Source of the DNA: Acheta domesticus
Lineage: Eukaryota > Arthropoda > Insecta > Orthoptera > Gryllidae
Direction: 5' to 3'
DNA length: 64,000 bases
NCBI GenBank assembly: GCA_031308135.1
Contig: JAHLJT010004567.1
Location: 128,473,356 to 128,537,355 of the forward strand
The notes below the pieces were generated by a model that saw only the letters and a program-made list of their open reading frames with translations, did not search any database and was not told the origin of the DNA. This document shows positions 28,201 through 64,000 of this stretch, in pieces (the stretch's first letter is position 1; every line of letters starts with the position of its first letter). Both the position numbers and the translations under genes were made by a program.

Positions 28201-28913
28201 CACAGTGCAGTACATTCACTGCTGAAATGTATGCAATACTCAAAGCCCTAATGTACATCGAGTCAACGACGCTGCAGCGAGTAGTTCTCTGTTCTGATTC
28301 TCTCAGTTCTCTTCAGGCTGTCTCCCGGCCTTCGTCAGACTACCTGACAAAATCAGTTCAAAACCTGATTCATAGTCTCATGTCCCGCAACTATGACCTG
28401 GTTCTTAGTTGGGTTCCAGGCCATGTGGGAATAACAGGGAATGAGCTGGCCGACCTGGCGGCGAAGTCTGCTACTCGTAATACTCGTATCGACGTTCCTG
28501 CTGTGCCATTGTCCGATGTTAAGGCTTACTTGAAACGATCTCTGTTTAGAGCGTGGCAAACAGAGTGGCACAATACCAATTTTAAACTAAGTGGGATAAA
28601 GAATTCTGTAATTCCCTGGCGTTCCTCATCTCGCTCCTCTAGGCGTGAGGAAGTAATTTTAACTCGTCTTCGAATTGGACACTGCCATTTTTCCCACGGT
28701 TTCCTCCTTCGAGGAGAAACTCCTCCCGTATGTGACTCATGCGGGACGGCTCTGTCTGTGGAACACGTCCTCCTGAACTGCAGGAAATATTTAGGCAACC
28801 GACGAAGACATGGCCTGGGCAACTCGCTAAGGGAGGTGCTCGGGGATGACGATTCCGCGCTCTCAAAAGTTTTTTGCTTCTTGAGGGAAAGCGGAATATA
28901 TAATCTTATTTGA
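25230..28913 (+). CDS. LINE-1 ORF2: endonuclease, reverse transcriptase, RNase H
   Basis: The frame is open from 25230, right after the ORF1 stop, with no ATG near its start. The endonuclease begins LSWNLNGFSLRRDE, then QETHLSP, and has GDVNAHSPLWGS and GSDHYPT catalytic blocks. RT carries YRPLSLTSCVCK, FDIEKAYDTTW, GIPQGSVLSVTLF and the active site FVDDFS (about 27225). RNase H has LFLYTDGSSHN, STFTAEMYAIL, LCSDSLSS and WVPGHVGITGNELAD. A terminal CCHC-like CDSCGTALSVEHVLLNC follows. Over 1200 codons are open. The missing ATG suggests termination-reinitiation after ORF1. Confidence 0.92.
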   Translation, partial: TTALLSWNLNGFSLRRDELKFLLSRYTPSTFCLQETHLSPSRSIHFRGFTPYRVDVDDGLRAHGGVTTLVQDSLHSAEIPVHTDLQTVCVRVYLPSLSLTVCNVYIPPRQTVSADDLLSLINQLPTPFLVVGDVNAHSPLWGSSRTCQRGAILESVIDTVNLAILNTGEPTHFAVATNSSTAIDVALCSSSLATAMRWTILEDLYGSDHYPTIVHIDHLRRSCARPPQWIVRRADWSTFQNNVNLSDGPFGNVDEMTEHFNSAVLAAASIAIPKASAKPRHPFVPWWNENCSRAVSARKKTLARLRHYPTVDNLIEYKRCRAKARRTILESKNASWRAYVSSLNCHTPPRLVWRKIRQIRGHSLPNTVPGLLKNGEIITSPDMIVEELAAHYEAMSSSANYAPDFLLIKERMESRPLDFFCRACEDYNTPFSISELRSALALARRTAPGPDEIHNLMLQHLPDVAMQFLLRLYNRIWEEHTIPAVWREAIVIPALKEGKDRSLSSSYRPLSLTSCVCKVLERMVNQRLVWTLECRNLLAPIQCGFRKHRSTLDHLVAFATEISTSFVLRQHLVAVLFDIEKAYDTTWRYGILRTLHSWGFRGKLPLFLQNFLSDRSFRVRIGDKLSNSHPLENGIPQGSVLSVTLFAIAINSIASVVREPVKASLFVDDFSIFCSSSSISVIQRQLQLVLNKLHEWSMSTGFKFSPTKCTGLHFCRIYHLHSDPILYLGGNQLPFTDSARFLGLTFDKSLTWRSHIRTLQTRCVSPLNLLRMLSGTSWGADRITLLRLYRALIRSALDYGSEVYGSAAPSTLRPINSIHHAGIRLSTGAYRTSRIECILADAGEPSLKIRRDILLASYGAKVSGLFNHPCRRIITRPKYESSYILRTSLPQPPGIRLRNLLRGLNVDLPTPVKPPNDLIPPWKLLPPNIDLRLSNLPKQNTSPLVYQKQFQDMREAYPDHLFLYTDGSSHNDAVACSFHCIWATKSYRLHSQCSTFTAEMYAILKALMYIESTTLQRVVLCSDSLSSLQAVSRPSSDYLTKSVQNLIHSLMSRNYDLVLSWVPGHVGITGNELADLAAKSATRNTRIDVPAVPLSDVKAYLKRSLFRAWQTEWHNTNFKLSGIKNSVIPWRSSSRSSRREEVILTRLRIGHCHFSHGFLLRGETPPVCDSCGTALSVEHVLLNCRKYLGNRRRHGLGNSLREVLGDDDSALSKVFCFLRESGIYNLI

Positions 28914-29787: not shown

Positions 29788-31082
29788 CGAGGGGCACTAG
29801 ATAAGTTTTCTACCTAAGTAAGAAATAACTGAGATAGATTGAAAATTTTATTATTTCTTTTCAATATAATCCCCTTCGAGTTCAATACACTTTCTCCACT
29901 TTTCAATCAAGGATGATATTCCAGAAAAATAAAAATTATTTTCCTGTCCTTCAAAGTACTCATTTACAGCACTCTTCACATGTTCATTGGACACAAATCG
30001 ACGACCACGCAAGTTTTTTTTTAGATTTCTGAACAGAAAATAGTCACTGGGGGCTAAATCTGGACTGTAGGGTGGGTGGTTTAATTCTTCAAAGCCACAG
30101 TCCCTAATTGCAGCAATTGATTTCCGGGACTTGTGCACGGGCGCGTTGTCGTGAAGAAGGAGCACCCCTTTAGACAGCTTCCCACGACGCTTCTCCTTTA
30201 TGGCATTCCTCAAATTGAGAAGAGTGTTAGCATAGGACTCACCAGTAATTGTTTTCTTGTTTTCCATGAACTCTATAAGCAAAATGCCCTGTGAATCCCA
30301 AAAAACGGTGGCCATGAGTTTGCCTGCAGATGGTTGCGTCCGAAACTTTTTCGGAGTTGGAGAACCCTTATGCTTCCACTGCATTGATTCTTGTTTTGTT
30401 TCAGGATCCCAAAAATGTACCCATGTTTCATCTCCCGTGACGATTTGAGCGATATAGTTGTCCGGATCCGACTCAAAAAGTCTCAAATTCTCCTCGCACA
30501 TTTCCACTCGCCACTGCTTATGGAGAGGAGTGAGCATTCTGGGCACCCATCTTGAACAAACTTTTGACATGCCTAAACGTTCATGAAGAATGCTCAAAAC
30601 TGTTGGCTCAGACACTTCGAACTCTCTAGCTATTGTTGCCACTTTGACACGTCTATCATGCATTACAAAATCTTCTATTTTCTTACACATTTCCGAAGAA
30701 GTCACTTCCACAGGTCTGCCAGAGCGCGGATCGTCTTCGATTGATTTTCTGCCCCATTTAAACTGCTTAGACCAGTACTTCACCTGGAAATAGGAAGGTG
30801 CACTATCACCAAACACTGCCAGCATCCGTGAATGGATATCTTTGGGCCCGGTGCCTTCCTTCGTGAGAAATTTGATGACAGCTCGGTGCTCCAACTTCGC
30901 CTGATCCATGACTATTTCGCACAGCACTACAATTGGCAACCGATTTCTCTGCGACTTGTGAGCGAAATGGTCTGAAACTTGGAAGAAAGCATGTTCAGAC
31001 ATGTCTGAACTTGTAACGTCATGCGCGCCCCGCTCAAAAGTCGGTAACTTGGTTAGGTAGAAAACATATCTAGTGCCCTCCG
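29788..31082 (-). mobile_element. Complete mariner transposon in the LINE-2 leader
   Basis: The 1295-bp element is flanked by TA on both sides (29786-29787, 31083-31084). Its terminal inverted repeats are close to CGAGGGGCACTAGATAAGTT and CGGAGGGCACTAGATATGTT and run for about 30 bp. LINE-1 carries the same leader sequence without this insert, so the empty site is known. Length and ends are typical of mariner. Confidence 0.95.
29851..31002 (-). CDS. mariner transposase, D,D34D
   Basis: The open frame of 383 codons encodes a cut-and-paste transposase. Sequence features are an N-terminal helix-turn-helix region, the WVPRML motif, and catalytic aspartates in VTGDETWVHFWDPET, LLLHDNAPVHK and SPDLAPSDYFLF. 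Thirty-four residues separate the second and third Asp, as in mariners. The likely native start is the internal ATG at 30909 (MDQAKLEHR), giving about 352 aa, which is close to family length. No stop or frameshift is visible, so it may be functional. Confidence 0.93.
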   Translation of the reverse strand: MSEHAFFQVSDHFAHKSQRNRLPIVVLCEIVMDQAKLEHRAVIKFLTKEGTGPKDIHSRMLAVFGDSAPSYFQVKYWSKQFKWGRKSIEDDPRSGRPVEVTSSEMCKKIEDFVMHDRRVKVATIAREFEVSEPTVLSILHERLGMSKVCSRWVPRMLTPLHKQWRVEMCEENLRLFESDPDNYIAQIVTGDETWVHFWDPETKQESMQWKHKGSPTPKKFRTQPSAGKLMATVFWDSQGILLIEFMENKKTITGESYANTLLNLRNAIKEKRRGKLSKGVLLLHDNAPVHKSRKSIAAIRDCGFEELNHPPYSPDLAPSDYFLFRNLKKNLRGRRFVSNEHVKSAVNEYFEGQENNFYFSGISSLIEKWRKCIELEGDYIEKK

Positions 31083-32776: not shown

Positions 32777-35700
32777 TTTCTCGTAATAGCTCTCTCATGG
32801 AACTTAAATGGTCTTCGTGCTCACTCAGAAGAATTAAGATTAATAATTTCTCGCCACAAACCATTTATAGTCCGTCTTCAGGAAACTCATCTTCTCCCTC
32901 ATCATCCCCTGTCTCTTCGCGGATTTAATATCTATCGGTTCGATCAAGACGACGGACTTCGTGCTCACGGCGGTGTCGCGGTCCTCATCCGCGACTCCCT
33001 GTTCTCGGAGGAACACAACGTTCGAACCGACCTCCAAACAGTTTGCGTTCGGTTACACCTACCATCGTTCTCTTTTACGGTGTGTAGTATACACATTCCC
33101 CCTGCCCAAGTCGTGTCACAAGAGGAACTCGAAGATGTTTTTTCTCAGTTGCCCGCCCCTTTTCTTATTGCGGGGGATTTTAATGCCCACAATCCCCTCT
33201 GGGGTGGCACGAGGACCTGCCCGAGAGGTTCTATCCTCGAAAATATTATTGACCAGCAAAACTTAATTCTTCTGAATTCCGGGAATCACACTTATTTCTC
33301 CATGGCGTCAAACTCCTCGTCAATCGATCTGGCACTCTGCAGTCCATCCCTATCTACCATGGTAGAGTGGACTGTACTCGATGATCTACATGGGAGTGAC
33401 CATTTTCCCACTTTGATCCATTTTAATATCCCTAATTTAGACGGCATCCACCCTCCTCGCTGGCTATTCCATCGAGCCGACTGGGATACATTCAGCGAGA
33501 AAATTCTAATGCCAGACCACTTTTCAAATAATATCGATACCTTGGTGGCCCAATTCACCGACGCCCTTCTTCGCGCAGCCACCATTGCAATCCCGAAGTC
33601 TACGTGTCGGCCACGACGCGTCCCGGTGCCTTGGTGGAATGCTGACTGTGCCACCGCGGTGCGTGACCGAAAGCAAGCACTCGCGAGGTTCAATAGGTTC
33701 CCCACCGCATCAAACCTGATCGATTTCAAAAGAAAGCGGGCCAGAGCCAGATTAGTAATACGGGAAAGTAAGACCGCTTCCTGGAGAGCCTTTATTTCTT
33801 CTCTTTCTTGCCATACCCCGCCTAATGTAGTATGGCGAAAGATCCGACAGATCGGAGGAAGATTTTCCCCACCATCTGTCCCAGGACTTCTTATTAATGG
33901 AAATCTTATTACTTCTCCAGAAAAAGTAGTTGAGGAATTGGCCTGTCATTATGAAAATACCTCCAGTTCCTTACACTACTCTCATAGCTTCTTGAAAACG
34001 AAGAGTAGAATGGAGAAATGCAGATTGGACTTCTCAACCTGCCTGGAGGAAGATTATAACGCCCCTTTCTCCATGGATGAATTTTCCTGTGCGCTCACCC
34101 GTGGGAAAGATTCTGCTCCAGGACCAGACCAGATACACAACCAAATGTTAAAACACCTGCCTGAAGAGGCACTTATCTTTCTCCTCCGTATCTTCAACAA
34201 GATTTGGATGGAACATACCTTCCTTAGAACCTGGCGCGAAGCGATTATTATTCCTATTCCTAAAGAAGGAAAGGACAGGACAAAGCCGTCAACCTACCGT
34301 CCAATCTCGCTCACAAGCTGTATATGCAAACTTCTGGAGCGAATGGTGAATACGCGTTTGGTCTGGCACCTGGAACAGAGAAACCTACTTACCCCATCCA
34401 ATGTGGTTTCAGGAAGAACAGGTCAACCATGGACCACCTTGTCACCCTTATCATACAGATCTCCACTGCTTTCGTGCTACGTCAACACGTAGTAGCAATT
34501 TTCTTCGATATAGAGAAAGCTTATGATACTACCTGGAGGTACGGCATTCTTCGCACCATCCATTCTTGGGGTCTTAGGGGCCGGCTCCCCCTTTTTTTAG
34601 TAGCCTTTCTTTCCTCAAGATACTTCCGCGTTCGCCTTGGTGACAGGGTATCCGCCAGCCACCATTTAGAAAACGGAGTCCCTCAGGGCTCAATTCTGAG
34701 TGTCACTCTGTTTGCCATCGCTATCAATAGTATAGCGTCGATAATCCGAGAGCCGGTGAAAGCATCGCTCTTCGTTGACGACTTTGCCATTTTCTGCTCT
34801 TCCAAGAGTATTCAAGTGATAGACAATTACAACTTGTCCTCAACAAATTGCAGGAATGGAGTGATGCGACAGGTTTCAAATTCTCCTCATCAAAAACTAA
34901 CTGTATGCACTTCTGCAGGATTTATCATCTTCATAACCACCCCGATCTTTTTCTTGGAAGCCATCTTCTACCTTTTGTGGACTCTGCAACTTTCCTTGGG
35001 CTTACTTTCGATAAGAGCCTAACTTGGTGAAATCATATACGTAAACTGAAAAGCCGATGTGTCTCACCTCTGAACCTCCTCCGCACCCTTACAGGCAGCT
35101 CTTGGGGAGCAGACCGTGTGTGTCTCTTGCGTTTGTATTGCGACTACCCTTCGTCTTCGGTTGGGCGCCTCGGACGGGTAGCCGGCTCGCTCAGTCGATA
35201 GACAGTCTGGCCTGAAATGGCGATGATGGAGGAAGCTGGCGGTCGGGGTCAAATGAGCATTGCATTCATATAACAACATGGGGGATTTATTCAGTAATAA
35301 ATCACGAATGAACTGGTACCAATCATGTCGGCGAGCATGCTCCCCTTTACCCAAATCAAAAGAATATCTCATGCACACACACAAGTTAAAATTAAGAAAT
35401 ACAAATTAATACAATTACAATGACATAGATTTTCTCCTTGCGCAAATTTCCTCTTGGCGGCCAAGCGCGGCCGGGGAATCTCTCTTCGTCGCCCGGTCAA
35501 AAGGTAATTAGCAAAAATTGTTCGCCACACAGTTTATGCCTTTCGACCACGGGCGCACCACAAAAGCAAAATAAATACTGCCTCCGCAAGGCGGCTTGCA
35601 CAACCCACCAAAGTTGAATAACCTCGGGCCGTCAGCTGGCTGCGAGGGTCGTCACGGGCGATGAGGCGCCGCCCGGGTTGGGTGGTGCGCAGGACTGAAC

Positions 35701-37933
35701 CAGGTATACGCGAGGGGGGTGCCAGAGCTGGCCCAACACACAGCGCCGTCCGCTCACTGTTGTGAATGATTAGGTAACGTCTGCTCGAACGAATGATCTC
35801 CTCACTCTCGATCTATCACACGGTATTTTGGAGATCGTAGCGAGTTCGTGAATCATCTAATAATCTCACGAAAAAGTCCCGAATTCGAGCACTAGTCGGA
35901 TATTAACACAGCACAATTCACTGTCAATTGTCCGTCACACAGCCCCGCGGTCTACAATTGTTAAAGGGGACTTGCACAAATTCTCCCAAGAAAACTCAAT
36001 GTTTTTTATAAGTCCATCCAACACGAACCGAACTCTGTCTCCGGCGCCTAGTGCCACCACAAAAGCAACTTGTCCCCCCTTGACCGCTACTCGCGTCCTA
36101 CCCCGAACGCAACTCGTTCGCTTCTCTCTTCGCGTCGCCTGCTCGAAGTCCCTCGAAGCTTCTTTCCCCCACCAAAATTATCCCCAAGATTCTGGAACCT
36201 TCCAGAACATTGCCTAATTCCGGCGGTTATTGGCGCAAGGGTAGTGCGTCTCAAACTATTTCTGCCCAATCGTCGGGTGTTTTTGAGGCCGAGAAATGAG
36301 AGAGAAGCTGGCTATCTCTCCCTCTCGCTTCAATTTTGCGTCAAATAGGGGCAGTTATTAATGACTGGGGGTGTGAGGGGCTGGAAATCTCAAGGGAGGC
36401 TGGGGGAGGGCTCGGAGCGTCGCGGAAAAATACCGGGGGTGCCGTGCGCACGAAACGACCACCCAAGCTCCGGGACACGTGGCCGTGACAAATTCAAAGG
36501 GTAGGGGGCGGCGAGTGGCCGCCGCCGTCCTGGCGCCGTCGGCTGACCCTCGCTGTCGTGCGACGCGGAGTAATTCTTAGGCGCGCAATTAACTGTAATA
36601 TATTCGGTATCACTACAGTATAGAACCCTCATCCGCTCTATTTTGGATTATGGATGTATTGTATATGGGTCAGCGTCACCATCAACCCTCCGGCCATTAA
36701 ATACCATTCACAACGCCGGTATAAGAATTAGTACAGGCGCCTACCGCACGAGTCGCATCGAATGCCTCTTGGCCGAAGCTGGAGAACCATCTCTGAGCCG
36801 AAGGCGAGATATTTTATTAGCCTCTTATGGGGCTAAAGTGTCGGGACTGGTTGACCACCCTTGTCGTCGTATAATCATCCACCCAAAGTATGAGTCCTCG
36901 TACATTCTTCGAACATCGTTACCCCATCCCCCAGGTAGTAGATTACGAAATCTCCGGGAATTAAATGTCGAACTTCCCACCCCTGTGAAACCCACAAGTG
37001 ACCGGATCCCCCCTTGGAAACTCCTCCTTCCCAGTATTGACTTCAGACTCTCCTATCTGCCCAAACAAACTACTAGTCCTCTGGTTTACCAGAAGCAATT
37101 TCTGGATATGAGAGAATCCTATCCGGATCATTTATTCTTATATACGGATGGTTCATCGTGCAGCGACGCGGTGGCATGTGGTTTTTACTGTATCAGGGCC
37201 ACCAAATCATTTCGGCTTCACTCCAAATGCAGTATTTTCACTGCCGAAATGTACGCAATCTTTGAGGCCCTAAAATACATTGAATCAGCGACGTTGCGGC
37301 GAGTAGTTATCTGTTCCGATTCTCTCAGCTCTCTTCAAGCTGTCTCCCGTCCTTCGTCAGACTACCTGACTTTATCCGTTCAAAGCCTGATTCATCGTCT
37401 TCTGTCCCGCCGCTATGACCTGGTACTTATTTGGGTCCCAGGCCACGTGAGTATCAGAGGGAACGAACTGGCCGACCAGGCGGCGAAATCAGCGACTCGT
37501 AAAATTCGTATCGAGATCCCTTCTGTGCCATTGTACGATGTTCAGGCTTTCTTGAAACGATCCGTGCTTAGAGTGTGGCAAACAAACTGGCACAATAGCA
37601 CTTTCAAACTAAGTGCGATAAAGAATTCTGTGTATCCCTGGCGCTCCTCATCACGGTCCTGTAGGTGCGAGGAAGTTATTTTAACCCGTCTTCGTATCGG
37701 ACCCTGCCATTTTTCTCACGGTTTCATTCTTCGAAATGAAACTCCCCCCATCTGTGACTCGTGCAAGACTTCTTTCCGTGGAACACGTCCTGCTGTACTG
37801 TAGGAAATTTGTTGGCAGTCGACGAAGACATGACCTGGGCAACTCGCTACAAGTGGTGCTCGGGGATGACGATTCTGCGATCTCAAAACTTTTTTGTTTT
37901 TTGAGAGAAAGCAGAATATATAATTTTATTTGA
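32777..37933 (+). pseudogene. LINE-2 ORF2, frameshifted and split by a solo LTR
   Basis: The endonuclease and first RT blocks are open from 32777 to about 34490 (LSWNLNGLRAH, GDFNAHNPLWGG, YRPISLTSCICK). A frameshift near 34400-34490 moves RT to 34324-35022 (FDIEKAYDTTW, GVPQGSILSVTLF, FVDDFAIFC), and further breaks lie near 34840 and 35027. The 1479-bp LTR insert at 35139 then separates the thumb from the RNase H part (36643-37803; LFLYTDGSSCS, STFTAEMYAIF-like, WVPGHVSIRGNELAD). The end is shifted again near 37740. Confidence 0.88.
35139..36617. mobile_element. Solo LTR (1479 bp) in LINE-2 ORF2
   Basis: The insert starts TGCGACTACCC and ends ATCACTACA, with a 4-bp duplication GTAT (35135-35138 and 36618-36621). 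TG...CA ends and the 4-bp duplication fit a Ty3/gypsy-type LTR. No internal retrotransposon region is present, so recombination between two LTRs probably removed it. The coding frame of LINE-2 resumes exactly across it. It is not alike in sequence to the LTRs at 6955 or 9762. Short ORFs within are not considered genes. Confidence 0.75.
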
Positions 37934-55257: not shown

Positions 55258-56164
55258 CATGTATGAATATTTCTGGAAAAGATACGCCACCTATACCATT
55301 TCCGAGAAACTTGGAAACGACTCAGTAACAGTACAGGAGGAATCTGTAGTTGATTAATACACAGATCGTGTAACAAACATTATTTGTATTACAAAAATTG
55401 TTTGTATTAGTAAGGTGACCAAATTTCCTACAACGGAAAGGTGAACGATTTTTTTAAATTACAATGTAAATAAATGAAACATTTTTTTAAATTCAAATAT
55501 ACTAATTACACAGGCCAACGACCAAAAAACGTTTTGTGTGTGTTCACCTAATTCTTATCATTTTACGTGTGCTGATTCCAAAAATAATAAAAATGCCGCC
55601 TCAGGCAAATGCTGCTCTGAGTATGTAGATAGGTATGAGATGCAGGAAGTTATAAATTCCCATATTTACTAATAGTACAACTTTGTATGTTCTGGCGCAC
55701 TTCCACTATCTCAATGAATTTAGTCACAAAAAATGTCCAAATTAAATTTGAGCAAGTAGTTGCCTAATGCGCCAAGAGAAAATGCAAGTGTAAACTAAAA
55801 TCTAATTTTGACCATATACTTTTAATCATTTGACCCACTATATTTTTGACCATATACTTTTAATCATTTGGCCCACTGTATTTAATAACAAGAGCAAAAT
55901 ACCCCCTTATTTCGTTTCTACAATCCTCATCTAAGGAGCTCCTATCTGCTGCTACTCTACTTATCCTTTTTGCCATGCCACGTTTTACACGTCACACAAC
56001 TTGCGAGTAGCAACACAACTTTCTGCTCCACTAGACAAGGAAGAGAGAGAGAGTATTTTGAGAATAGGTCATGAACTCACTTTTCCGCCTCAATCAATTC
56101 TTATTGTTAACATATATGGCCACTCAGAATCCACCTTGAATTGAATCGACGGAAAGTGTATTCT
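55258..56164. other. AT-rich gene-free stretch
   Basis: One short direct repeat is present: TTTTGACCATATACTTTTAA appears at about 55807 and 55846. Nothing else was recognised. Confidence 0.45.
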
Positions 56165-56174
56165 CAATAAATAT

Positions 56175-56248
56175 GCGCCAACCCAGGATTCGAACCCAGG
56201 TCGGCTGTGCTCGAAGCCACTGCCTTTACGACTGTAGCTACTGAGCAC
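56175..56248 (-). tRNA. tRNA-like sequence, probably a pseudogene or SINE head
   Basis: Read on the minus strand, GGTTCGAATCC is a full polymerase III B box, preceded at normal distance by an A-box-like TAGCTACAGTCG. The T arm can fold, but the acceptor ends do not pair cleanly, so a working tRNA is unlikely. An arthropod tRNA-derived SINE fragment is a good alternative. Confidence 0.4.
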
Positions 56249-56473
56249 TGTAGGACGTATAAAATTCTATATATGTTACACAACGATCAGCACTAGCGTA
56301 ATCTATCAGCGAATGTATAAAAACAGCTTGAAGCTGCATATCTTCTCTCTCTTTTTTACTCAAGGTCAACCAGCGCAGCGCAGCGAGTCATTACTATGCA
56401 AGACAGCACCGCGCGCCGTGGAAGCATGCCAAGCTTACATTACATAACTTCCGCGATTAAACATCCGATAAGT

Positions 56474-56495
56474 TTTTATGGACCTATCCATAAAA
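56474..56495. promoter_or_regulatory. Intergenic palindrome 1
   Basis: TTTTATGGA-CCTA-TCCATAAAA, a perfect 9-bp stem, lies 29 bp downstream of the capsid gene stop. One of seven related palindromes in the element. Confidence 0.75.
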
Positions 56496-56523
56496 CAACA
56501 ATATAATTAGAACTGCGACTTAT

Positions 56524-57722
56524 CTAAAACTTTTCAATTATTTTCTCATTCTCCAAATCATAAATCAATGTTTTGTCACCAAGTAGGTTTACATAACAAT
56601 GAGTATTAGCAGGCATATTATTCGAAAGTGTTCCACAAAGTTTAATATTATTTCTAAAATTAATTGTTTCTCGTTTCCTCTTGCTGGAATTTATCACAAA
56701 AATAGGGCTTTTATCAATAAATGTTTCAGGATCTAATAACATTTTAGTACGATTTCTAACAACTCTTTGAAACGCTGTGTATGCCTCATAAGCATTTAAA
56801 TACATTTTCTTATTAATATCTAAATTCCAAAATTCAAGAGGAAGAACCTCATTCTTACTGTTTTTCAAATACAAATTTTCTAGTTTACAATGATCGAATA
56901 GACTAGAGTCAGCATTTTGATTTTCTTTTCGATTGGTTTGAAATATGACGAATACAAAATCAGGCATATCAAATTCCTTAGAGTTGAATTGCGTTGTAAA
57001 TCTAGTTCAAATTGTTTACCGTTTAAACCTGAAAATTCAATACACTGATTAGTTCCAAATGTTATAGATGTTTTTCGGTTCTTCAACATCGTTCCTCTTA
57101 TTTGATCAGCACAGTTAGATTGATAAACAACAATAGGCATTTTTACTGAAATGTTTTTAATTACAATTTTTCCTTTTGGTGTCGTTGATGCGTCACCCCA
57201 TCTGAATAAACAATTATCATCATTCGCACCGCGTCTAAAAGAAATCTGTAAACCTCCTTTCCACATTATTTCCTGGTAATCTTGAAAGAAACCAAATAGC
57301 AATTTAAGCGGAAAGAGAATTTCATTTTCCTTTCTTTGAACTTTCTCACCAGTAAAGAAACACATGTTTAACTCTTTTGTGTCATCTGACGAATAATAGG
57401 ATCTAACCATAGTAGTTGAAACAATTCCTGGATGATCAATTCTTTCAATAATTGTACCATGTTTCCTAATCGTTATATCTGAAAACATATGAGGAAAGAA
57501 ATTTTCAACCAGTTTAATATTTGAAGGGTAAGTAGTAAAATTTGACCCATCATCTTTATGAACAACTTCGAATTGCATATAGCAATGAGCGTGATGAGGA
57601 TAACAAAAGCCATCGCCAATATTTATGTCAAAGTCAATGTTTTGATTGTACAAATTGATATTTCCTTTTGTTCGGTCATTTGATGGAAATGACTGGAATT
57701 CATAACTTTCTACCTTCTCCAT
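56524..57722 (-). pseudogene. Major capsid protein gene, frameshifted
   Basis: The ATG at 57722 opens a 280-codon frame (56880-57722) that goes out of phase near 56965-56985. The rest continues in another frame to 56524. Position, total length of about 400 residues and sequence blocks such as PHHAHCYMQFEVV, NFFPHMFSDITI and PLKLLFGFFQDYQ suggest the double jelly-roll capsid protein of Polinton-like elements. I recognise it from context more than from a diagnostic motif. The break means no full capsid protein is made from this copy. The start lies in AATAAATG. Confidence 0.7.
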
Positions 57723-57745
57723 TTATTATAAATATATTTTTAATT

Positions 57746-57769
57746 TTTTATGGGTATTTATCCATAAAA
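57746..57769. promoter_or_regulatory. Intergenic palindrome 2
   Basis: TTTTATGG-GTATTTAT-CCATAAAA, between the fibre-like gene stop and the capsid gene start, 24 bp before the ATG. Confidence 0.8.
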
Positions 57770-57783
57770 GATAGTTTCATTCT

Positions 57784-58716
57784 TCACTCATTCGTCTTTA
57801 CAATTATAGTAGCATGAATAAGTAATTTATATCCTTCGGAGTATCCTAATCCTTTCTTGATAGTAACATATATTCGATCACCTTTCTGAAAATAAACTTT
57901 AAAAGAATTAAAATGAATAAGACTTCTTTTCAATGACTCAGGTGGTCTTGTTACATAAATCTCTAAATCATCTCTTAGTATGTTTGTTGATATACTTGTC
58001 ACCCAACCATTATACATAACTTCGAAAAAGGGCAAACCAAAAAATTCAAATTTCCCATCATCTTTTAAAGTTCCATAAAGCACAAGAATACTTGTAATGT
58101 TCTTTTGAAAATAATCTAAAGGAATAGGGTCTTTTAATTCCATTGGTTCAGGAAGTTCAGTCGATGTAGGTTTCTCCTCTATTATTTTTTTCAATTTATT
58201 TAATTCTTCATCTAGCTGAGACTTAATTGCCATATCGTTCAATGATGCTATCTCTTTCAATTGTTTAATTTCATTATCTAGCTGAGACTTAATAACCACA
58301 TCGCCGTCTAATATGCCTGCTCCCACTTTCCTTATTAATTTACCATGAAAGTTATAATTTCCTGATGAACCAACTTTAGGTAATATTGATATCAAACTTT
58401 CGGTTTCCTTTTTGTGGTTGTTCATTATACTTTCCATTTGACTTTTATTAATAGCATCTGTCGGTTCAGTTCCATCTTTCAAATTAGTTATTTTCTTCCT
58501 CTTCACATTAATACGTTCGGATTCGAAGTTTAAATTCTTCTTAACAGCACTCATACTCCTACTCATTTCTGTAACAATACGATCTCTTTTAATTAAATCA
58601 TCTGATAGTTTATCTATGTTTTCCTTCAAACTACGAACTAAAGAACCTACATCTGATAAGTCAACTTCCTTAGAACTACCTTCTTCTGACTCATTACCAA
58701 ACACACTTAAATACAT
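57784..58716 (-). CDS. Fibre-like protein with coiled coils
   Basis: The 310-aa frame starts at an ATG within AATAAATG. The first ~100 residues are helical and charged. DGTEPTDAINKSQMES resembles the repeated pattern of phage and adenovirus-like fibre shafts. Two similar IKSQLDxELxxLKxI units (around residues 145-180) follow. The C-terminal ~100 residues are beta-rich and globular-looking (FGLPFFEVMYNGWVTSIST). The likely role is receptor binding or virion surface attachment; this is inferred from form and position, not from a named family. The gene is intact. Confidence 0.6.
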   Translation of the reverse strand: MYLSVFGNESEEGSSKEVDLSDVGSLVRSLKENIDKLSDDLIKRDRIVTEMSRSMSAVKKNLNFESERINVKRKKITNLKDGTEPTDAINKSQMESIMNNHKKETESLISILPKVGSSGNYNFHGKLIRKVGAGILDGDVVIKSQLDNEIKQLKEIASLNDMAIKSQLDEELNKLKKIIEEKPTSTELPEPMELKDPIPLDYFQKNITSILVLYGTLKDDGKFEFFGLPFFEVMYNGWVTSISTNILRDDLEIYVTRPPESLKRSLIHFNSFKVYFQKGDRIYVTIKKGLGYSEGYKLLIHATIIVKTNE

Positions 58717-58728
58717 TTATTTAATAAT

Positions 58729-58752
58729 TTTTATGGATTTTTACCCATAAAA
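58729..58752. promoter_or_regulatory. Intergenic palindrome 3
   Basis: TTTTATGG-ATTTTTAC-CCATAAAA, adjacent to the protease stop at 58754 and 13 bp before the fibre-like gene ATG. Confidence 0.8.
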
Positions 58753-58753
58753 G

Positions 58754-59146
58754 TTAAACTAACATATTTAATACCTCATCAAAACTCTTATCATTAGAAA
58801 GCTCATTCAAAACAAATAAACACAAATGTCCGCAAATAACAGTATTAAAATCTTGAATCCTTTTGTCATTGTAAAATATTCTTGTGTTCTTCAAATATGT
58901 AACTATTTCTTTCGAAGGTCTCCCACCATAAGAATCAAATATATATGAAACATTTCCTTCTTTCCAATAACAAACCCAATGTGTTCCTTCGTTTCGCGAT
59001 TTATCCAAATTGACTACAGCACACTCATTTGTTAACGTATTATTAGGAAGTTCATCAGCCATAAAAACACCTCTAAAAATCTTTATATTCATTTTCCTAG
59101 CAATTTGAACAATATCAAAATTAGACAACGGACTCAGTTTTTTGCC
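58754..59146 (-). CDS. Adenain-type cysteine protease
   Basis: The frame resembles the maturation protease of adenoviruses and Polintons. The catalytic His is in NEGTHWVCYW, the acidic residue in FDSYGGRPS, Gln seven residues before the catalytic Cys, and the Cys in ICGHLCLFVL. It would cleave capsid and core precursors. The conserved N-terminal stretch SNFDIVQIARKM has no ATG before it: the first in-frame ATG is at 59092, after that stretch. The open frame runs upstream without a stop into the 3' end of the preceding gene, in the -1 phase. Production as a frameshift fusion is therefore possible. The domain is otherwise intact. Confidence 0.88.
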   Translation of the reverse strand, partial: GKKLSPLSNFDIVQIARKMNIKIFRGVFMADELPNNTLTNECAVVNLDKSRNEGTHWVCYWKEGNVSYIFDSYGGRPSKEIVTYLKNTRIFYNDKRIQDFNTVICGHLCLFVLNELSNDKSFDEVLNMLV

Positions 59147-59523
59147 TTTGAGTTTTTTGACTTCTTAATTCCAGTATCTTTCTTTTCCATAGCTAAGTTG
59201 TGTCGTTTCATTTCTTCAAGTTCACTCTTATTTTTATGAACGTCAGAAACTGTTTTTGCTATAGCTGCTGCACCACCTGCAACACTTCCAATCGCTCCGA
59301 TAGCTGCTAAAATTGCAGGTATTGTAAAAATAAAACCTCCAACATGTTTCTTTTCTTTTACTAATTTTTTCATCTGTGCGATACTTAAAGTTAAAGTCAT
59401 ACCTTGACCCTTTGCTAAACATTTCTCTTTTTCGCTTATTTGTTTCTTGGTTAAAATGTGATCAATATTTAACGTCTTCAACTCATTCTCACTCAACTTA
59501 AACGAAGCTCCATTGACAGCCAT
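59134..59523 (-). CDS. Small protein with a Gly/Ala-rich hydrophobic segment
   Basis: The 129-aa frame starts at an ATG in AATAAATG. After a hydrophilic N-terminus (LSENELKTLNIDHILTKKQI), the segment VGGFIFTIPAILAAIGAIGS and the following AGGAAAIAKTV are strongly hydrophobic. The tail is very basic (KKSKNSKAKN). The form recalls membrane-active or core minor proteins (pVI/pX-like) coded beside adenain in adintoviruses; that is inference. Its last codons contain two A AAA AAC heptamers that lead into the protease frame. Confidence 0.6.
   Translation of the reverse strand: MAVNGASFKLSENELKTLNIDHILTKKQISEKEKCLAKGQGMTLTLSIAQMKKLVKEKKHVGGFIFTIPAILAAIGAIGSVAGGAAAIAKTVSDVHKNKSELEEMKRHNLAMEKKDTGIKKSKNSKAKN
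59137..59155 (-). promoter_or_regulatory. Two tandem A AAA AAC slippery heptamers
   Basis: The last codons of the hydrophobic-protein gene read TCA AAA AAC TCA AAG GCA AAA AAC and then the stop TGA. Each AAA AAC pair is preceded by an A, so both are canonical -1 slippery heptamers in the correct phase. A -1 slip at either enters the protease frame. Confidence 0.7.
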
Positions 59524-59539
59524 TTATTGAAAGAAAAAA

Positions 59540-59565
59540 CTTTTATGAACCATTATTCGTAAAAG
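59540..59565. promoter_or_regulatory. Intergenic palindrome 4
   Basis: CTTTTATGAA...TTCGTAAAAG with one mismatch, between the PLA2 protein stop (59593) and the hydrophobic-protein ATG (17 bp away). Confidence 0.7.
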
Positions 59566-59592
59566 CATAATCTAAGTTTAACAACTAACTAT

Positions 59593-61065
59593 TTATAAAC
59601 CCCATCCCATTTTCCTTTTCGTATACATAATACCAGCAGCACCTGCTGATGCTAATTTTTCTTTCCAATCTGAATCTTTACTAAATACATTAACTAATGC
59701 TTTGTCTTGTAGAACTTTATCTGCTTCATGTCTTTTGTTTAATTCTTTGTTTTCGTGATAAGCTATGTCGTGTTCTTTACAAGCCTCATCCAAATTATTA
59801 ATACCTTCTTCACCTCTTTCTAACCGTTCTTTTAACTTAGTAAACGGACCGCAATAGTTATAACCAGGAATGTGAAGCTCTGGCATTTTAAGATTATTTA
59901 AAGCCCAATTAATTATTCCTTTACCATATTTCTTATTTTCCCAGAACGATGGTGGTAACATGTTTAAGAATTTTATTACGTACGATGTACCTTTAGGATT
60001 ATTAACTACAAAATCATTGAACTTAGAAGATAACATTTTCATTATGGAGACTTTTTCATTTCGATAATTATTATTACCTGCTTTCTCTTCCCCGTCGATA
60101 ACAACCAAACGATCAATTAAGTCTCTAACATCATTCATCCAAACATATTCAACCGGTAACTCATTATATTTTTTCACAAAGCCTTCTCCGCTTTTTGGTG
60201 TTCTTCTCCTTGGTGTACTAGTTTCGAAACTTGATTCTCCTTCGAATGTTGAACTGCTTTCGTTTGTACATGTTTTTCCTAGAATGTGCTTAATTATTGA
60301 TTTGTATTTTGCTCCTCTACTTGCTCTCGGTTTACCTTTACAAAATATTGCATTTGTTCCAAGTAAAATTTCAGCATAATTCTGCAAATCATCATCTTCA
60401 AATTTTGAGTCAAGATCCTCCATAGTAATGTCCTTTTGAGTAAGAAGATTCATTAAACCATCAGTAGCTTCATACGTTTTTCCTAGTACACTTAACTGAT
60501 CATGTTGTCTTCCACCAATTGTTAATGTGCTAAATTCTACAGGTTCGTCACCAATATATTTTTCTGCATCTTGTGATTTTAAGCCGAAAGTTTTGTCGTT
60601 GCAGTTGTTCAGATATTTTAATAATCGTAATCCTATAAAAGTTGGTTTTCGTTTTGGAGTTGCGCCAAGTTCTTGTGATTCTTCATCTTGTTGATAATCA
60701 CAAGCCATTTGACTTGCTATGTATTTCATTTCTCTTTTTTGAGTTTCTTCTGCAAAATCACGAAGCACGTTATCTACTTCCGAATCATTTAATGTTCTGT
60801 TGACTTCCAAATCTTCACTTGTGTTTATTAATGGATACTTTCTTAATAGAACAAGTTCTTTAGTTTGATTTTCAATAGCCTTATCTAGTTTTTCGCCAAG
60901 GTTACCAATTGCATCAATCATAGGCTGTTCCTGTATTTTGTATTTGTCATATTCATTAACTCTTTGTTTTGCCCAACCTTTAAATCTATCTTTTAAGTAT
61001 TCTCTCATCTTTATTGCTTCTTCAGCTTTTTTCACATCATAAGGATTCTTCATCTTACTAGCCAT
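59593..61065 (-). CDS. PLA2-domain virion protein
   Basis: The 490-aa frame starts at an ATG in AATAAATG and is intact. Residues about 401-460 form a parvovirus/adintovirus-type phospholipase A2: GYNYCGPFTKLKERL (calcium loop) and NNLDEACKEHDIAYH with the catalytic His-Asp pair. In related virions this domain breaches endosomal membranes. The N-terminal 300 residues are charged and helical and of unknown fold. The end KRKMGWGL is basic. No stop is present, so this gene may still be expressed. Confidence 0.85.
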   Translation of the reverse strand: MASKMKNPYDVKKAEEAIKMREYLKDRFKGWAKQRVNEYDKYKIQEQPMIDAIGNLGEKLDKAIENQTKELVLLRKYPLINTSEDLEVNRTLNDSEVDNVLRDFAEETQKREMKYIASQMACDYQQDEESQELGATPKRKPTFIGLRLLKYLNNCNDKTFGLKSQDAEKYIGDEPVEFSTLTIGGRQHDQLSVLGKTYEATDGLMNLLTQKDITMEDLDSKFEDDDLQNYAEILLGTNAIFCKGKPRASRGAKYKSIIKHILGKTCTNESSSTFEGESSFETSTPRRRTPKSGEGFVKKYNELPVEYVWMNDVRDLIDRLVVIDGEEKAGNNNYRNEKVSIMKMLSSKFNDFVVNNPKGTSYVIKFLNMLPPSFWENKKYGKGIINWALNNLKMPELHIPGYNYCGPFTKLKERLERGEEGINNLDEACKEHDIAYHENKELNKRHEADKVLQDKALVNVFSKDSDWKEKLASAGAAGIMYTKRKMGWGL

Positions 61066-61135
61066 TTATTATATACAAAATAATTTTAAAACGTAAACAT
61101 AACGTTAACATAACTTAAAACCAACCTAAACACAT

Positions 61136-61818
61136 CTATGTGAAAAGAAAGTCTTTAATTTTATTACGATATTTACCATCTTTTAGTTTTCTCGTCATAT
61201 CAATCGTCATAAAACCATAGTCTTCATCCCAACACTCACTACACATACTTCTCAATTCATCAAAGGTTACATCACCGCAAACAAAATCATCATAAATATG
61301 CTTTAAATTTGTATTGTCTTGTCTGAATAAACAGAAAATTAACATTGTCTCTAACACATTGTTTTGGTACTTTGGTGTATGTTTGAGCTAAATAAAAACA
61401 ATCAATATTCTTATGTCTACCACGTGTAAAGAAATCACGCACATTATTTTGATTCACTAACATATAATCATCAAACACAACTACAGAATTATTTTTACAA
61501 TCGTCAAGAGGTATATCTTCTCTCGAAAATGTTGCAATTGAATGACCTATATCTTTTTCAATTGAATTGTAATAGTCTTGTAATTGAGAGTACTTTGGTT
61601 GATTTAAGCTTGTCGAGAATATATATAAGTGTTTTCCCTTCCAATCTAACCACCCAGGAGAAAGAATAAAATTATCAATCATTAAAGTAGTTTTAGCGCA
61701 ATTAAAAGGACCAACAATTAAACAACGAATTGATTCAGGTAATAGTTCACCGTTACGTTTTGTTTTTCAGGTAAGCGTACATTAATATTCCAATCAACTT
61801 TCTTTCTTCTACTCATTT
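61136..61818 (-). pseudogene. DNA-packaging ATPase (FtsK/HerA type), frameshifted
   Basis: The natural start is the ATG at 61818 inside AATAAATG (MSRRKKVDWN). The frame is lost near 61760. Beyond that, Walker A reads IVGPFNCAKTT (about 61690-61725) in another phase, followed by the open piece to about 61340 with Walker B SVVVFDDYM and a sensor-like FYLAQTYTKVP. A second frameshift near 61340 moves the end to 61136. The family packs genomic DNA into Polinton-like capsids. Two breaks make it non-functional here. Confidence 0.85.
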
Positions 61819-61829
61819 ATTATAAAGCT

Positions 61830-61855
61830 TTTATGGTAACCAAACCATAAAAGAA
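61830..61855. promoter_or_regulatory. Intergenic palindrome 5
   Basis: CTTTTATGGT-AACCAA-ACCATAAAAG, a perfect 10-bp stem, 12 bp before the ATPase ATG. Confidence 0.85.
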
Positions 61856-61868
61856 TGTTTAAATCAAA

Positions 61869-61991
61869 TCATCGATCAACTCTCCTTCTTACAAGCTCAT
61901 GCAGAAACTCATGTATCAAGTGTATAAAAGAAAAGAAGCAATTTTTACACCTTCTGTTTCGATTCTCATCGTCAAGCTCTTCTCTACTCAT
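61869..61991 (-). CDS. Possible small gene, 40 aa
   Basis: A short ORF starts at an ATG at 61991 preceded by AAATAAAT, similar to the start context of its neighbours. It codes for an acidic start (MSREELDDEN) followed by RNRRCKNCFF and an Arg-rich end. It fits between the ATPase palindrome and the penton-like gene. It was too short to weigh statistically, and no family is recognised. Confidence 0.3.
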   Translation of the reverse strand: MSREELDDENRNRRCKNCFFSFIHLIHEFLHELVRRRVDR

Positions 61992-62009
61992 ATTTATTTA
62001 AAAAAGTTT

Positions 62010-62703
62010 TCACAATTGAACATTCAAAACAACTGTTACATTAGCTCCATCAAAATCAATCGGATTGTTATTTTCATCAGTAAACCAAACACGAATTCTT
62101 TCTATTCTTTGATTGAGAGGAAAATATAAAAGGTGTTTTGGTTCAAATGATATTAAACGGCCTAATTGAATATTTGAAAGTTGAAATGATGTTAGATGTT
62201 GAATGCTTATGATCATCATATTTAAATATCATCCCATCAGCCAAATCACAGTGAACATTAATTGTATTGAAAGGTAATATCTTTGGAACTGTTTTACCAA
62301 TGCTTTTTGTTTTAGCTTCTATATCTTCTTCAAAACCTAAAACTTTACCAATTGAGTTAGGTTGATTAAACCTTAATTTGAAATCAGATATTACTTCTAC
62401 TCTATTCTTAATTGTGTTAGCTTTTATCTGAATGTTTGTTGAATTAAACGGTTCTTTTGATTGAATATGTTTTGCTAGTTCTTCTATGTTCTTATATTGC
62501 CCTATTTCAATTTCGATTTGCTTATCATCATCATAATGCAAGATATTGTTTTGTTTGGTTACATTTGGAGTTAAATAAGCTGAAGAAAAACTAACTAATG
62601 AAACAGAAGCATCAATATGTCTGATTGGATAGCTTAATCGTTTTTCGAGAATGTAGTTTTCCTTTGTCAACATACCATTAAAGAGTAACGTCAATCCACT
62701 CAT
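62010..62703 (-). pseudogene. Penton-like minor capsid protein, frameshifted
   Basis: The ATG at 62703 within AATAAATG opens a frame to about 62143. A change of phase near 62200 is needed to continue to the natural-looking end at 62010. Blocks such as ISDFKLRFNQPNSIGKVLGF are characteristic of the single jelly-roll penton protein of Polinton/adintovirus elements (the NS-IGxxLGF block). It would form capsid vertices. The start is only 23 bp from the divergent integrase start. Confidence 0.72.
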
Positions 62704-62726
62704 TTATTTAACAAATTATTTAATAC
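62704..62726. promoter_or_regulatory. Divergent promoter gap between penton-like and integrase genes
   Basis: Only 23 bp of AT-rich sequence separate two start codons that point apart. The minus side carries AAATAAATG. Confidence 0.5.
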
Positions 62727-63875
62727 ATGTATTGTGTAAAGTGTAAGAAACAAACTGATTTTGTTAAAGGTTCTCTAAGAAAGGAATTAACATCTAATGG
62801 TAGGTTTATACATAAAAGTACTTGTAACGAATGTGGTTCTATAAAATGTCAATTCGGTAAAGGAATTAAACAAGAACATATAGATATAAAGATTAAGCAA
62901 GACTATAATCCAATCGAAATTAAACAAGAAAAGAAGCCAATTAACATTAAGGAAGAAATTGTTAAAGAATTACATAAACCAACAAGACGTAACTTCAAAC
63001 GAAGAAACATTATTACAAATGGAATTGATGATCTTTGGCAAGCTGATTTAGTAGAAATGGATAGTGGAAAACTGAAAGGTATTTCAAAAATTAATAAAGG
63101 CTTTAAGTACTTGTTAACTATAATTGATGTATTCAGTAAGTTTGCTCGGGTTGTACCTTTAAAAGATAAATCTAGTTCGAATATAATAAATGCATTTGAA
63201 ACTGTGTTTAAAGAACGAATACCAAAAAACTTACATACAGATGAAGGAAGAGAATTCTATAACAAGGATTTTAAACAATTAATGAAATTAAACAATATTA
63301 ATCATTATTCGACTCATAGTGGTATTAAGGCTGCAGTAGTTGAGAGATTTAACAGAACATTGAAAGAAAAAATGTTCAAACTATTTTCTATGCAAGGAAC
63401 GTATAAATGGTCTGAGTTGTTATCGAAACTTGTAAGTGAATACAATAACACAGTTCATTCAACAATTGGTATGAAACCTAAAGATGTTAGTAAAAAAGAT
63501 GAACAAATGTTGATAAATAGTGTGTATAAGCAGCAGTGTGCTGTTGTTAAAAATAAGTATAAGATTGGAGACAAAGTTAGAATAAGCAAATCCAAAGGTA
63601 TGTTCGAGAAAGGTTATACTCCTAACTGGTCAACAGAAGTGTTCGAAATTTATGAATCTATCCCATCGAATCCACCAACCTACAAACTGAAAGATTTAAG
63701 TGGAGATCATGTAGAAGGTTTGTTTTATGAACCTGAATTACTTAAGACAAAATATTCAGACGTTTATTTAGTTGAAAAGGTATTGAAAAAGAAAGGTGAT
63801 AAAGTGTTTGTTAAATGGTTAGGTTTTGATAGTTCTCATAACTCATGGATTAATAAAGCAAGTGTGGTTGTTTAA
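62727..63875 (+). CDS. Polinton integrase with chromodomain
   Basis: The 382-aa protein begins with a CxxC zinc ribbon (MYCVKCKKQT and CNECGSIKC). The retroviral-type integrase core follows, with catalytic residues in DLWQADLVEM, LHTDEGREFY and VERFNRTLKEKM. The C-terminal ~45 residues (VYLVEKVLKKKGDKVFVKWL) form a chromodomain, which would direct integration towards marked chromatin. It integrates the linear element DNA. The frame is intact. It is the only plus-strand gene of the element in this window. Confidence 0.93.
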   Translation: MYCVKCKKQTDFVKGSLRKELTSNGRFIHKSTCNECGSIKCQFGKGIKQEHIDIKIKQDYNPIEIKQEKKPINIKEEIVKELHKPTRRNFKRRNIITNGIDDLWQADLVEMDSGKLKGISKINKGFKYLLTIIDVFSKFARVVPLKDKSSSNIINAFETVFKERIPKNLHTDEGREFYNKDFKQLMKLNNINHYSTHSGIKAAVVERFNRTLKEKMFKLFSMQGTYKWSELLSKLVSEYNNTVHSTIGMKPKDVSKKDEQMLINSVYKQQCAVVKNKYKIGDKVRISKSKGMFEKGYTPNWSTEVFEIYESIPSNPPTYKLKDLSGDHVEGLFYEPELLKTKYSDVYLVEKVLKKKGDKVFVKWLGFDSSHNSWINKASVVV

Positions 63876-63878
63876 ATG

Positions 63879-63906
63879 ACTTTTATGGTTTAAATATCAT
63901 AAAAGT
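63879..63906. promoter_or_regulatory. Intergenic palindrome 6
   Basis: ACTTTTATG...CATAAAAGT, beginning 4 bp after the integrase stop. Confidence 0.8.
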
Positions 63907-63942
63907 TGTGTGTAAGAAGGGGCTCCCTTGTTTGTTAAAATA

Positions 63943-63969
63943 GCTTTGATGGTTAATTACCATAAAAGC
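63943..63969. promoter_or_regulatory. Intergenic palindrome 7
   Basis: GCTTTGATGG...CCATAAAAGC with one mismatch. The region from here to the window end shows no ORF. Confidence 0.7.
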
Positions 63970-64000
63970 ATCTATACAAATTTAAAACTAAAAACATTTA

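What the first reader, a model, noticed from the sequence alone, without database searches (positions are those of the whole stretch)
56474..63969. Seven copies of a CTTTTATGG...CCATAAAAG palindrome between Polinton genes
Seen directly: stems of 8-10 bp with loops of 4-10 bases at 56474, 57746, 58729, 59540, 61830, 63879 and 63943. Five lie 2-30 bp after a stop codon (capsid, fibre-like, protease, PLA2 protein, integrase), and four lie 12-24 bp before the next ATG. None is inside a gene. A shared punctuation signal (3'-end hairpin, promoter operator or packaging site) would explain this. I know of no described element of this kind in Polintons.
Basis: partly seen in the sequence, partly recalled or inferred. 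Interest (0 to 1): 0.85.

Follow-up and report, generated by a model that had tools for sequence, protein, structure and literature searches.

The report
Shared gene-end hairpins in Polintons
A 14-kb virus-like element (Polinton), present in dozens of copies in what is likely an insect genome, carries the same short palindrome just after the stop codons of seven of its eleven genes, and the palindrome likely acts as a hairpin that marks where each messenger RNA ends.

Summary
Seven copies of CTTTTATGG-N6..8-CCATAAAAG lie between Polinton genes; 300 shuffles gave at most one. Each lies 0-29 bp after a stop codon. Three (56473, 63880, 63944) have no gene start downstream, so the 3' end is the shared landmark. 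The element is 14.08 kb with 127-bp terminal inverted repeats. In the same 2.33-Gb genome, the best 30 of 114 integrase matches were fetched; all 30 have a palindrome behind the integrase. Where flanks were replaced (capsid 3' end, L142/L144) a palindrome remains, with one inner pair different on both sides. Two more distant Polinton families of this genome lack it in the pieces read. Best reading: a bidirectional 3'-end hairpin, working like those of insect iridovirus, Mimivirus and Marseillevirus transcripts, but with a conserved stem sequence and in a Polinton. No RNA was available; function is inferred and the covariation is weak. Side finding: six of seven genes of the capsid cluster start with TAAATG, the poxvirus late-start signal. 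Bold reading: an insect Polinton using a large cytoplasmic DNA virus's gene punctuation, as the virophage Sputnik does.

The parts
56473..56496 (.). palindrome 1, after the capsid gene (24 bp)
   Evidence: 27 bp after the capsid stop at 56524; no gene start downstream on that strand
57745..57770 (.). palindrome 2, after the fibre-like gene and before the capsid gene (26 bp)
58728..58753 (.). palindrome 3, directly after the protease gene and before the fibre-like gene (26 bp)
59540..59565 (.). palindrome 4, after the PLA2 gene and before the protease gene (26 bp); most other stretches read TTTTATGA...TCATAAAA
61828..61853 (.). palindrome 5, after a 40-aa ORF and before the ATPase gene (26 bp, perfect)
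63880..63905 (.). palindrome 6, 4 bp after the integrase stop (26 bp)
63944..63968 (.). palindrome 7, 29 bp after the stop (63998) of the convergent next gene (25 bp)
56524..57722 (-). double-jelly-roll capsid gene, frame broken in this copy (two overlapping ORFs)
   Evidence: PF21738 in both pieces
57784..58716 (-). fibre-like gene (YadA_stalk)
58754..59523 (-). protease gene with an N-terminal extension; one open frame in another copy (L140), two ORFs here
   Evidence: adenovirus endoprotease, weak, below cut-off
59593..61065 (-). phospholipase A2-domain protein gene
   Evidence: PF08398
61136..61816 (-). packaging ATPase gene (Pox_A32), broken in this copy
61869..61991 (-). 40-aa ORF
62010..62703 (-). 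gene of unknown product (penton position, inferred), broken in this copy
   Evidence: no Pfam match
62727..63875 (+). integrase gene (rve)
   Evidence: PF00665
55673..55799 (.). left terminal inverted repeat of the element; partner at L136:5682-5808, beyond the window
   Evidence: 127 bp, 97.6% identity
57720..57725 (-). TAAATG at the capsid start codon; same at 58714-58719, 59521-59526, 61063-61068, 61814-61819, 62701-62706

Best explanation
The seven palindromes are one repeated element, CTTTTATGG-N6..8-CCATAAAAG, placed 0-29 bp after stop codons, and they likely work as RNA hairpins that end the transcripts of the genes before them, on either strand. Shown: the shared sequence, the positions and the presence in other copies. 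Predicted: folding of the gene-sense strand into a hairpin at all seven sites. Inferred: that transcription or cleavage stops there. In this model genes without their own palindrome (ATPase, the 62010-62703 gene, the RING-finger gene and the polymerase) would share the 3' end of the next gene downstream, giving 3'-coterminal units: polymerase to the 124-aa gene, 62703 gene to the 40-aa ORF, ATPase to PLA2, then protease, fibre and capsid each alone. A symmetric site can serve convergent genes: most fetched copies have a single palindrome between the integrase and its convergent neighbour.
For: Sequence family far beyond shuffles. Every site follows a stop codon; palindromes 1, 6 and 7 have no gene start downstream. 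The convergent junction of integrase and 124-aa gene holds a palindrome in 30 of 30 integrase-selected stretches (the best 30 of 114 matches, the window's own copy among them): one in 24, two in 5, one rearranged (L160 read). Six further copies with broken integrase frames also have it (L189-L194). No palindrome in the left arm or in L136:31-5808. At the capsid 3' end of L142 and L144 the distal flank is unrelated to the other fetched copies, yet a palindrome stands at the same place with an inner pair A-T instead of G-C. Across sites the outermost pair occurs as C-G, G-C and T-A. Spacers of 6, 7 or 8 suit a loop better than a rigid protein dimer (inference). RNA folding of the gene-sense strand predicts a hairpin at 7 of 7 sites, -7.0 to -12.9 kcal/mol, z -1.3 to -5.3. 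Precedents: hairpins with conserved motifs at insect iridovirus 3' ends (PMC5923455, passages); Marseillevirus palindromes follow stop codons whatever gene comes next (PMC5413956, passages).
Against: No RNA data of any kind. Four of eleven genes have no palindrome behind them. The covariation is weak: shuffles reach the observed pairing with frequency 0.037 (outer pair), 0.108 and 0.015 (two inner pairs) over 13 variants picked by hand, and 0.047, 0.52 and 0.18 with one row per site. In L142/L144 the whole palindrome may have come with the new flank rather than by two point changes, and its outermost pair is a C-A mismatch. G-U wobbles show no clear bias to the transcribed strand (by hand from the table, outermost to second inner pair: five on the sense strand, three on the other, one at the convergent site). 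Stem core columns vary less than loop plus flank (3 of 42 against 26 of 127, p 0.034), but not at palindrome 4; the copies used for palindromes 2 and 4 were fetched around perfect palindromes (mostly palindrome 3, L134 by palindrome 2 itself) and may hold one copy twice. The divergent junction without a palindrome is only 23 bp long, too short to hold one, so its lack says little. No RNase III or poly(A) polymerase match among the ORFs scanned. The control pattern (read backwards) has 591 sites in the genome against 268 for the palindrome, so the raw genome count proves nothing; the clustering does.
Confidence: 0.5

Rival explanations
1. Host poly(A) signal carrier: each arm reads CATAAA on its own strand, a known weak variant of AATAAA (recalled), so the palindrome would give a poly(A) signal in both directions and the hairpin would be incidental.
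For: CATAAA is on the gene-sense strand at six of seven sites. By eye, no AATAAA follows the capsid or integrase stop within about 120 bp, so CATAAA is the only candidate there.
Against: Does not explain the symmetry in tandem gene pairs or the double changes outside CATAAA. In the CTTTGATGG form the 124-aa gene reads CATCAAA; some such copies have AATAAA at the stop, but L175 and L185 have neither.
Confidence: 0.2
2. DNA operator: a dimeric protein binds the palindrome to switch the downstream genes.
For: Conserved symmetric half-sites, 11-22 bp before the start codons of capsid, fibre, protease and ATPase. Medusavirus has a palindromic promoter-like motif (PMC8557863, passages). A viral contig in IMG/VR has five operator-like palindromes of this general form (L035/L105).
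Against: Seven of eleven genes have none upstream; three sites are not upstream of any gene. Length varies by 1-2 bp, whereas the five L035 palindromes are all 22 bp. Medusavirus shows the opposite layout: 22 of 115 divergent and 0 of 88 convergent regions.
Confidence: 0.13
3. Recombination joint: cruciforms at gene borders promote exchange of gene modules, perhaps cut by the endonuclease-VII-like part of the polymerase gene.
For: Homology breaks at palindromes: unrelated left end in L142/L144, several arrangements behind the integrase, a duplicated palindrome 5 with about 120 bp between the copies (L172). Weak Endonuclease_7 match (E 3.7e-4, below cut-off).
Against: Breaks may only be tolerated between genes. 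The fixed place behind stop codons needs a further reason.
Confidence: 0.08
4. Chance or a small mobile palindrome that spread inside the element.
For: Only the raw genome count against its backward control.
Against: 49 of the 50 listed sites (of 268) lie in recognisable Polinton copies; shuffles exclude chance; loops and flanks differ from site to site.
Confidence: 0.03

Closest known systems
3'-end hairpins of invertebrate iridovirus IIV-6 (TAATG...CATTA)
   Same: Insect DNA virus; complementary motifs form hairpins in the 3' regions of about half the genes and may serve as terminators (PMC5923455, passages).
   Different: Other motif (TTTTATG...CATAAAA here); a Polinton, not an iridovirus; no transcript ends known here.
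Hairpin rule of Mimivirus and Marseilleviridae
   Same: Palindromes between genes, tied to the upstream stop codon whatever comes next (PMC5413956 and PMC4402537, passages).
   Different: In Mimivirus the sequence is not conserved and the virus encodes the cleaving enzyme and poly(A) polymerase (PMC4402537); here the stem sequence is fixed and no such gene was seen.
Sputnik virophage
   Same: Small double-jelly-roll virus related to Polintons (recalled); a mimivirus-type hairpin poly(A) signal at the end of 16 genes and the mimivirus late promoter upstream of 12 (PMC6723459, passages).
   Different: Protist host and known giant-virus helper; none known here.
Medusavirus palindromic promoter-like motif
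   Same: Repeated intergenic palindrome in a large DNA virus.
   Different: Upstream of genes and absent from convergent regions (PMC8557863, passages).
Short inverted repeats at yeast poly(A) sites
   Same: AT-rich inverted repeats enriched at gene ends (PMC6420913, abstract).
   Different: Not one shared sequence; cellular genes.

Membership tests
Polinton/Maverick | rve integrase, double-jelly-roll capsid, packaging ATPase | tested here: met
Polinton/Maverick | adenovirus-type protease | tested here: inconclusive
   weak Peptidase_C5 match, E 0.037 (window) and 0.15 (L140), below cut-off
Polinton/Maverick | protein-primed DNA polymerase B | tested here: inconclusive
   long ORF at L136:2776-5592 and a broken remainder with a YMDTDS-like motif seen by eye (motif recalled); no polymerase Pfam match
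Polinton/Maverick | terminal inverted repeats beginning AGT | tested here: met
   127 bp, 97.6% identity; AGT start is a recalled criterion
Polinton/Maverick | 6-bp target site duplication | tested here: inconclusive
   flanks ACTAAT and ACTTTT, 4 of 6 alike, in a decayed copy
viral 3'-end hairpin (hairpin rule) | palindromes between genes, after stop codons regardless of the downstream gene | tested here: met
   7 of 7
viral 3'-end hairpin (hairpin rule) | strand folds into a hairpin | tested here: met
   7 of 7, predicted
viral 3'-end hairpin (hairpin rule) | transcript ends lie in or at the hairpin | not testable with these tools
   no RNA data
viral 3'-end hairpin (hairpin rule) | virus-coded RNase III and poly(A) polymerase | tested here: not met
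   no match among scanned ORFs; a helper or the host could supply them, so this is filed as working like, not as a member
IIV-6 hairpin motif | TAATG...CATTA stem | tested here: not met
   stem core is TTTTATG...CATAAAA
DNA operator (dimer site) | fixed spacing between half-sites | tested here: not met
   24, 25 and 26 bp
poxvirus-type late start | TAAATG at the start codon | tested here: met
   6 of 7 capsid-cluster genes; 9 of 204 minus-strand ATGs in 55673-64000

The most novel reading that the evidence does not exclude
This Polinton is an animal provirophage: its genes carry both punctuation marks of large cytoplasmic DNA viruses, TAAATG starts and hairpin ends, because they are expressed by the transcription machinery of an insect-infecting poxvirus-like or iridovirus-like helper, as Sputnik genes are by Mimivirus.
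Probability: 0.12. Interest if true: 0.92.

Novelty: new variant of a known kind. Interest (0 to 1): 0.62.

Why it matters
How Polintons of animals express their genes is, to my knowledge, unknown. A sequence tag at seven gene ends gives exact predictions for transcript ends that one long-read RNA experiment can test. If the ends fall in the hairpins, an animal mobile element uses viral rather than ordinary host 3' processing. Together with the TAAATG starts, this makes a helper-virus lifestyle for animal Polintons testable.

Tried and rejected
Generic hairpin enrichment: not significant. Strand bias of G-U pairs: none clear. Idea that loss of CATAAA is made up by AATAAA at the 124-aa gene's stop: contradicted by L175 and L185. 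Search for reverse-transcribed mRNA copies ending at a palindrome: in 45 matches to 57300-60100 none begins or ends closer than 16 bp to a palindrome (40 of 191 candidates scored). TATA-box reading of CATAAAAG: by hand the distance to ATG is 19-30 bp and varies, too short for a start site upstream of ATG. Relatives in IMG/VR: none by integrase. A tightened pattern gave 0. GTDB contigs: none. More distant Polintons of the same genome lack the motif in the pieces read: 56-61% integrase identity (L187; 3' ends L195-L199) and 49% (L188, where a single different palindrome lies at an ORF end).
Full report
What is there. The window is G000:C2935:128473356-128537355 of a 2.33-Gb assembly. Its right end holds a Polinton with a double-jelly-roll capsid, YadA-stalk fibre, phospholipase A2, poxvirus A32-type ATPase and rve integrase. 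Terminal inverted repeats at 55673-55799 and L136:5682-5808 (127 bp, 97.6%) give a length of 14.08 kb. The copy is decayed: the capsid, protease, ATPase, the gene at 62010-62703, the RING-finger gene and the polymerase region are each split over several ORFs. Copies with uninterrupted ATPase or protease frames exist.

The palindromes. Seven copies of CTTTTATGG-N6..8-CCATAAAAG stand between genes. Three hundred shuffles gave 0 or 1 such motif against 7; perfect 8-bp inverted repeats as a class are not enriched. The window's TTG-started ORF 58754-59128 and the ORF 59134-59523 are one 256-aa gene in another copy, so the gene map is eleven genes: capsid, fibre, protease, PLA2, ATPase, 40-aa ORF, 62010-62703 gene, integrase, 124-aa gene, RING-finger gene and polymerase.

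Position. Gaps from stop codon to palindrome are 27, 13, 0, 27, 15, 4 and 29 bp. Gaps to a downstream start are 22, 11, 16 and 11 bp for four sites; the other three have no gene start downstream. Palindrome 1 lies in a space of 724 bp between the capsid stop and the left terminal repeat, yet only 27 bp from the stop. No palindrome stands upstream of PLA2, the 40-aa ORF, the 62703 gene, integrase, the 124-aa gene, the RING-finger gene or polymerase. The divergent 62703/integrase spacer is only 23 bp, so its lack is not telling.

Other copies. An exact 8+8 pattern has 268 sites in the genome (backward control 591); of the 50 sites listed, 49 lie in Polinton copies. An integrase search gave 114 matches. 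The 30 best, fetched without regard to palindromes and including the window's own copy, all have a palindrome behind the integrase. Palindrome 5 is seen in 21 of these 30, and in at least 4 of the other 9 it lies beyond the fetched stretch. Six copies with broken integrase frames also keep the palindrome behind the integrase (L189-L194). That junction takes several forms among the 30: one palindrome CTTTTATGGTTAAATGCCATAAAAG in 21 (two with one change), two palindromes in 5, one CTTTGATGG-type in 3, one rearranged.

Constraint. Copies are 91-98% identical over 57300-60100, so mere presence in them is weak evidence. For palindromes 2, 4 and 5 the stem core varies in 3 of 42 columns against 26 of 127 for loop plus flank (Fisher p 0.034); palindrome 4 alone shows no such difference, and the stretches for palindromes 2 and 4 were fetched around perfect palindromes. 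In L142 and L144 the sequence to the left of palindrome 1 is unrelated to the other fetched copies, but TTTTATGAA-TGAG-TTCATAAAA stands where others have TTTTATGGA-CCTA-TCCATAAAA. It may have come with the new flank. Across 13 variants picked by hand the outermost pair is C-G, G-C or T-A and the inner pairs G-C/A-T and A-T/T-A; shuffles of the 3' letters reach the observed pairing with frequency 0.037, 0.108 and 0.015. This is modest support for pairing itself, and it weakens with one row per site (0.047, 0.52, 0.18).

Range. Elements with 56-61% integrase identity (L187, and 3' ends L195-L199) and one with 49% (L188) do not have the motif in the pieces read. No relative was found in IMG/VR or GTDB contigs. 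The element is therefore a feature of one Polinton lineage as far as could be seen.

Mechanism. The common landmark is the stop codon, the strand is predicted to fold into a hairpin at 7 of 7 sites, and one palindrome suffices between convergent genes in most fetched copies. This is the layout of viral 3'-end hairpins: Marseillevirus palindromes follow stop codons whatever gene comes next (PMC5413956, passages), Mimivirus transcripts end at hairpins whose sequence is not conserved (PMC4402537, passages), and insect iridovirus IIV-6 has conserved TAATG/CATTA hairpins at 3' ends (PMC5923455, passages). Medusavirus palindromes, a promoter candidate, show the opposite layout (PMC8557863, passages). 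A host poly(A) signal (CATAAA in each arm) is the main rival. The element works like these hairpins in layout; membership is not claimed, since no RNase III or poly(A) polymerase was found and transcript ends are unknown.

Start signal. Six of the seven genes left of the integrase start with TAAATG, the seventh with TAAATATG; 9 of 204 minus-strand ATGs in 55673-64000 are preceded by TAA (hypergeometric 6e-9; the motif was chosen after seeing it). Four of five starts read in the 61% family match as well, while the GC-rich 49% family has TATAAAAGG upstream of one ORF. TAAATG is the poxvirus late start signal, also in an entomopoxvirus (PMC3061580, passages). Sputnik carries both its helper's late promoter and its hairpin signal (PMC6723459, passages). 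Hence the novel case.

Literature. Searches for Polinton or adintovirus with palindrome, hairpin, promoter, polyadenylation or TAAATG gave capped lists (20 of 44, 20 of 35,508, 20 of 202, 15 of 35 and 10 of 140 papers; titles and abstract starts seen), and none of the listed entries names such an element. In PMC11071308 the words palindrom, promoter and intergenic do not occur. Most subscription papers are not in that library.

Noticed in passing
57720-57725, 58714-58719, 59521-59526, 61063-61068, 61814-61819, 62701-62706 (-): TAAATG at the start codons of six genes of the capsid cluster, with T rather than A or G at position -3; four of five starts read in the 61% family show it too.
   Followed up: partly
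58754-59523; L140:2426-3196: Protease frame carries an N-terminal extension with a weak adenovirus core protein X match (E 0.0084, below cut-off): possible core-protein/protease fusion.
   Followed up: partly
L136:2776-5592: Polymerase ORF contains a weak Endonuclease_7 match (E 3.7e-4, below cut-off).
   Followed up: no
L172:448-619: Palindrome 5 is duplicated with about 120 bp between the copies; also in L124 and L126.
   Followed up: partly
L142:1-180, L144:1-180: Left end beyond palindrome 1 is unrelated to the other fetched copies and holds a repeat with a unit of about 79 bp.
   Followed up: partly
L187:553-1370: The 61% Polinton family carries a matrixin-type metalloprotease gene beside the integrase, and two fibre-like ORFs on its other side.
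   Followed up: no
L188: The 49%-identity, GC-rich Polinton family has a TATAAAAGG box upstream of one ORF and a 9-bp palindrome at that ORF's stop codon.
   Followed up: no
L035:2025-5093, L105:816-3884: Viral contigs with five palindromes of constant 22 bp (TTTATGGGATCCCATAAA type), perhaps repressor operators.
   Followed up: no
4339-6096, 10876-13383, 20603-21337, 25296-28913, 29851-31002, 33080-34492, 36643-37803: PIF1 helicase ORF, a retroelement with rve integrase, LINE-type reverse transcriptase and RNase H ORFs and a mariner-type transposase lie elsewhere in the window.
   Followed up: no
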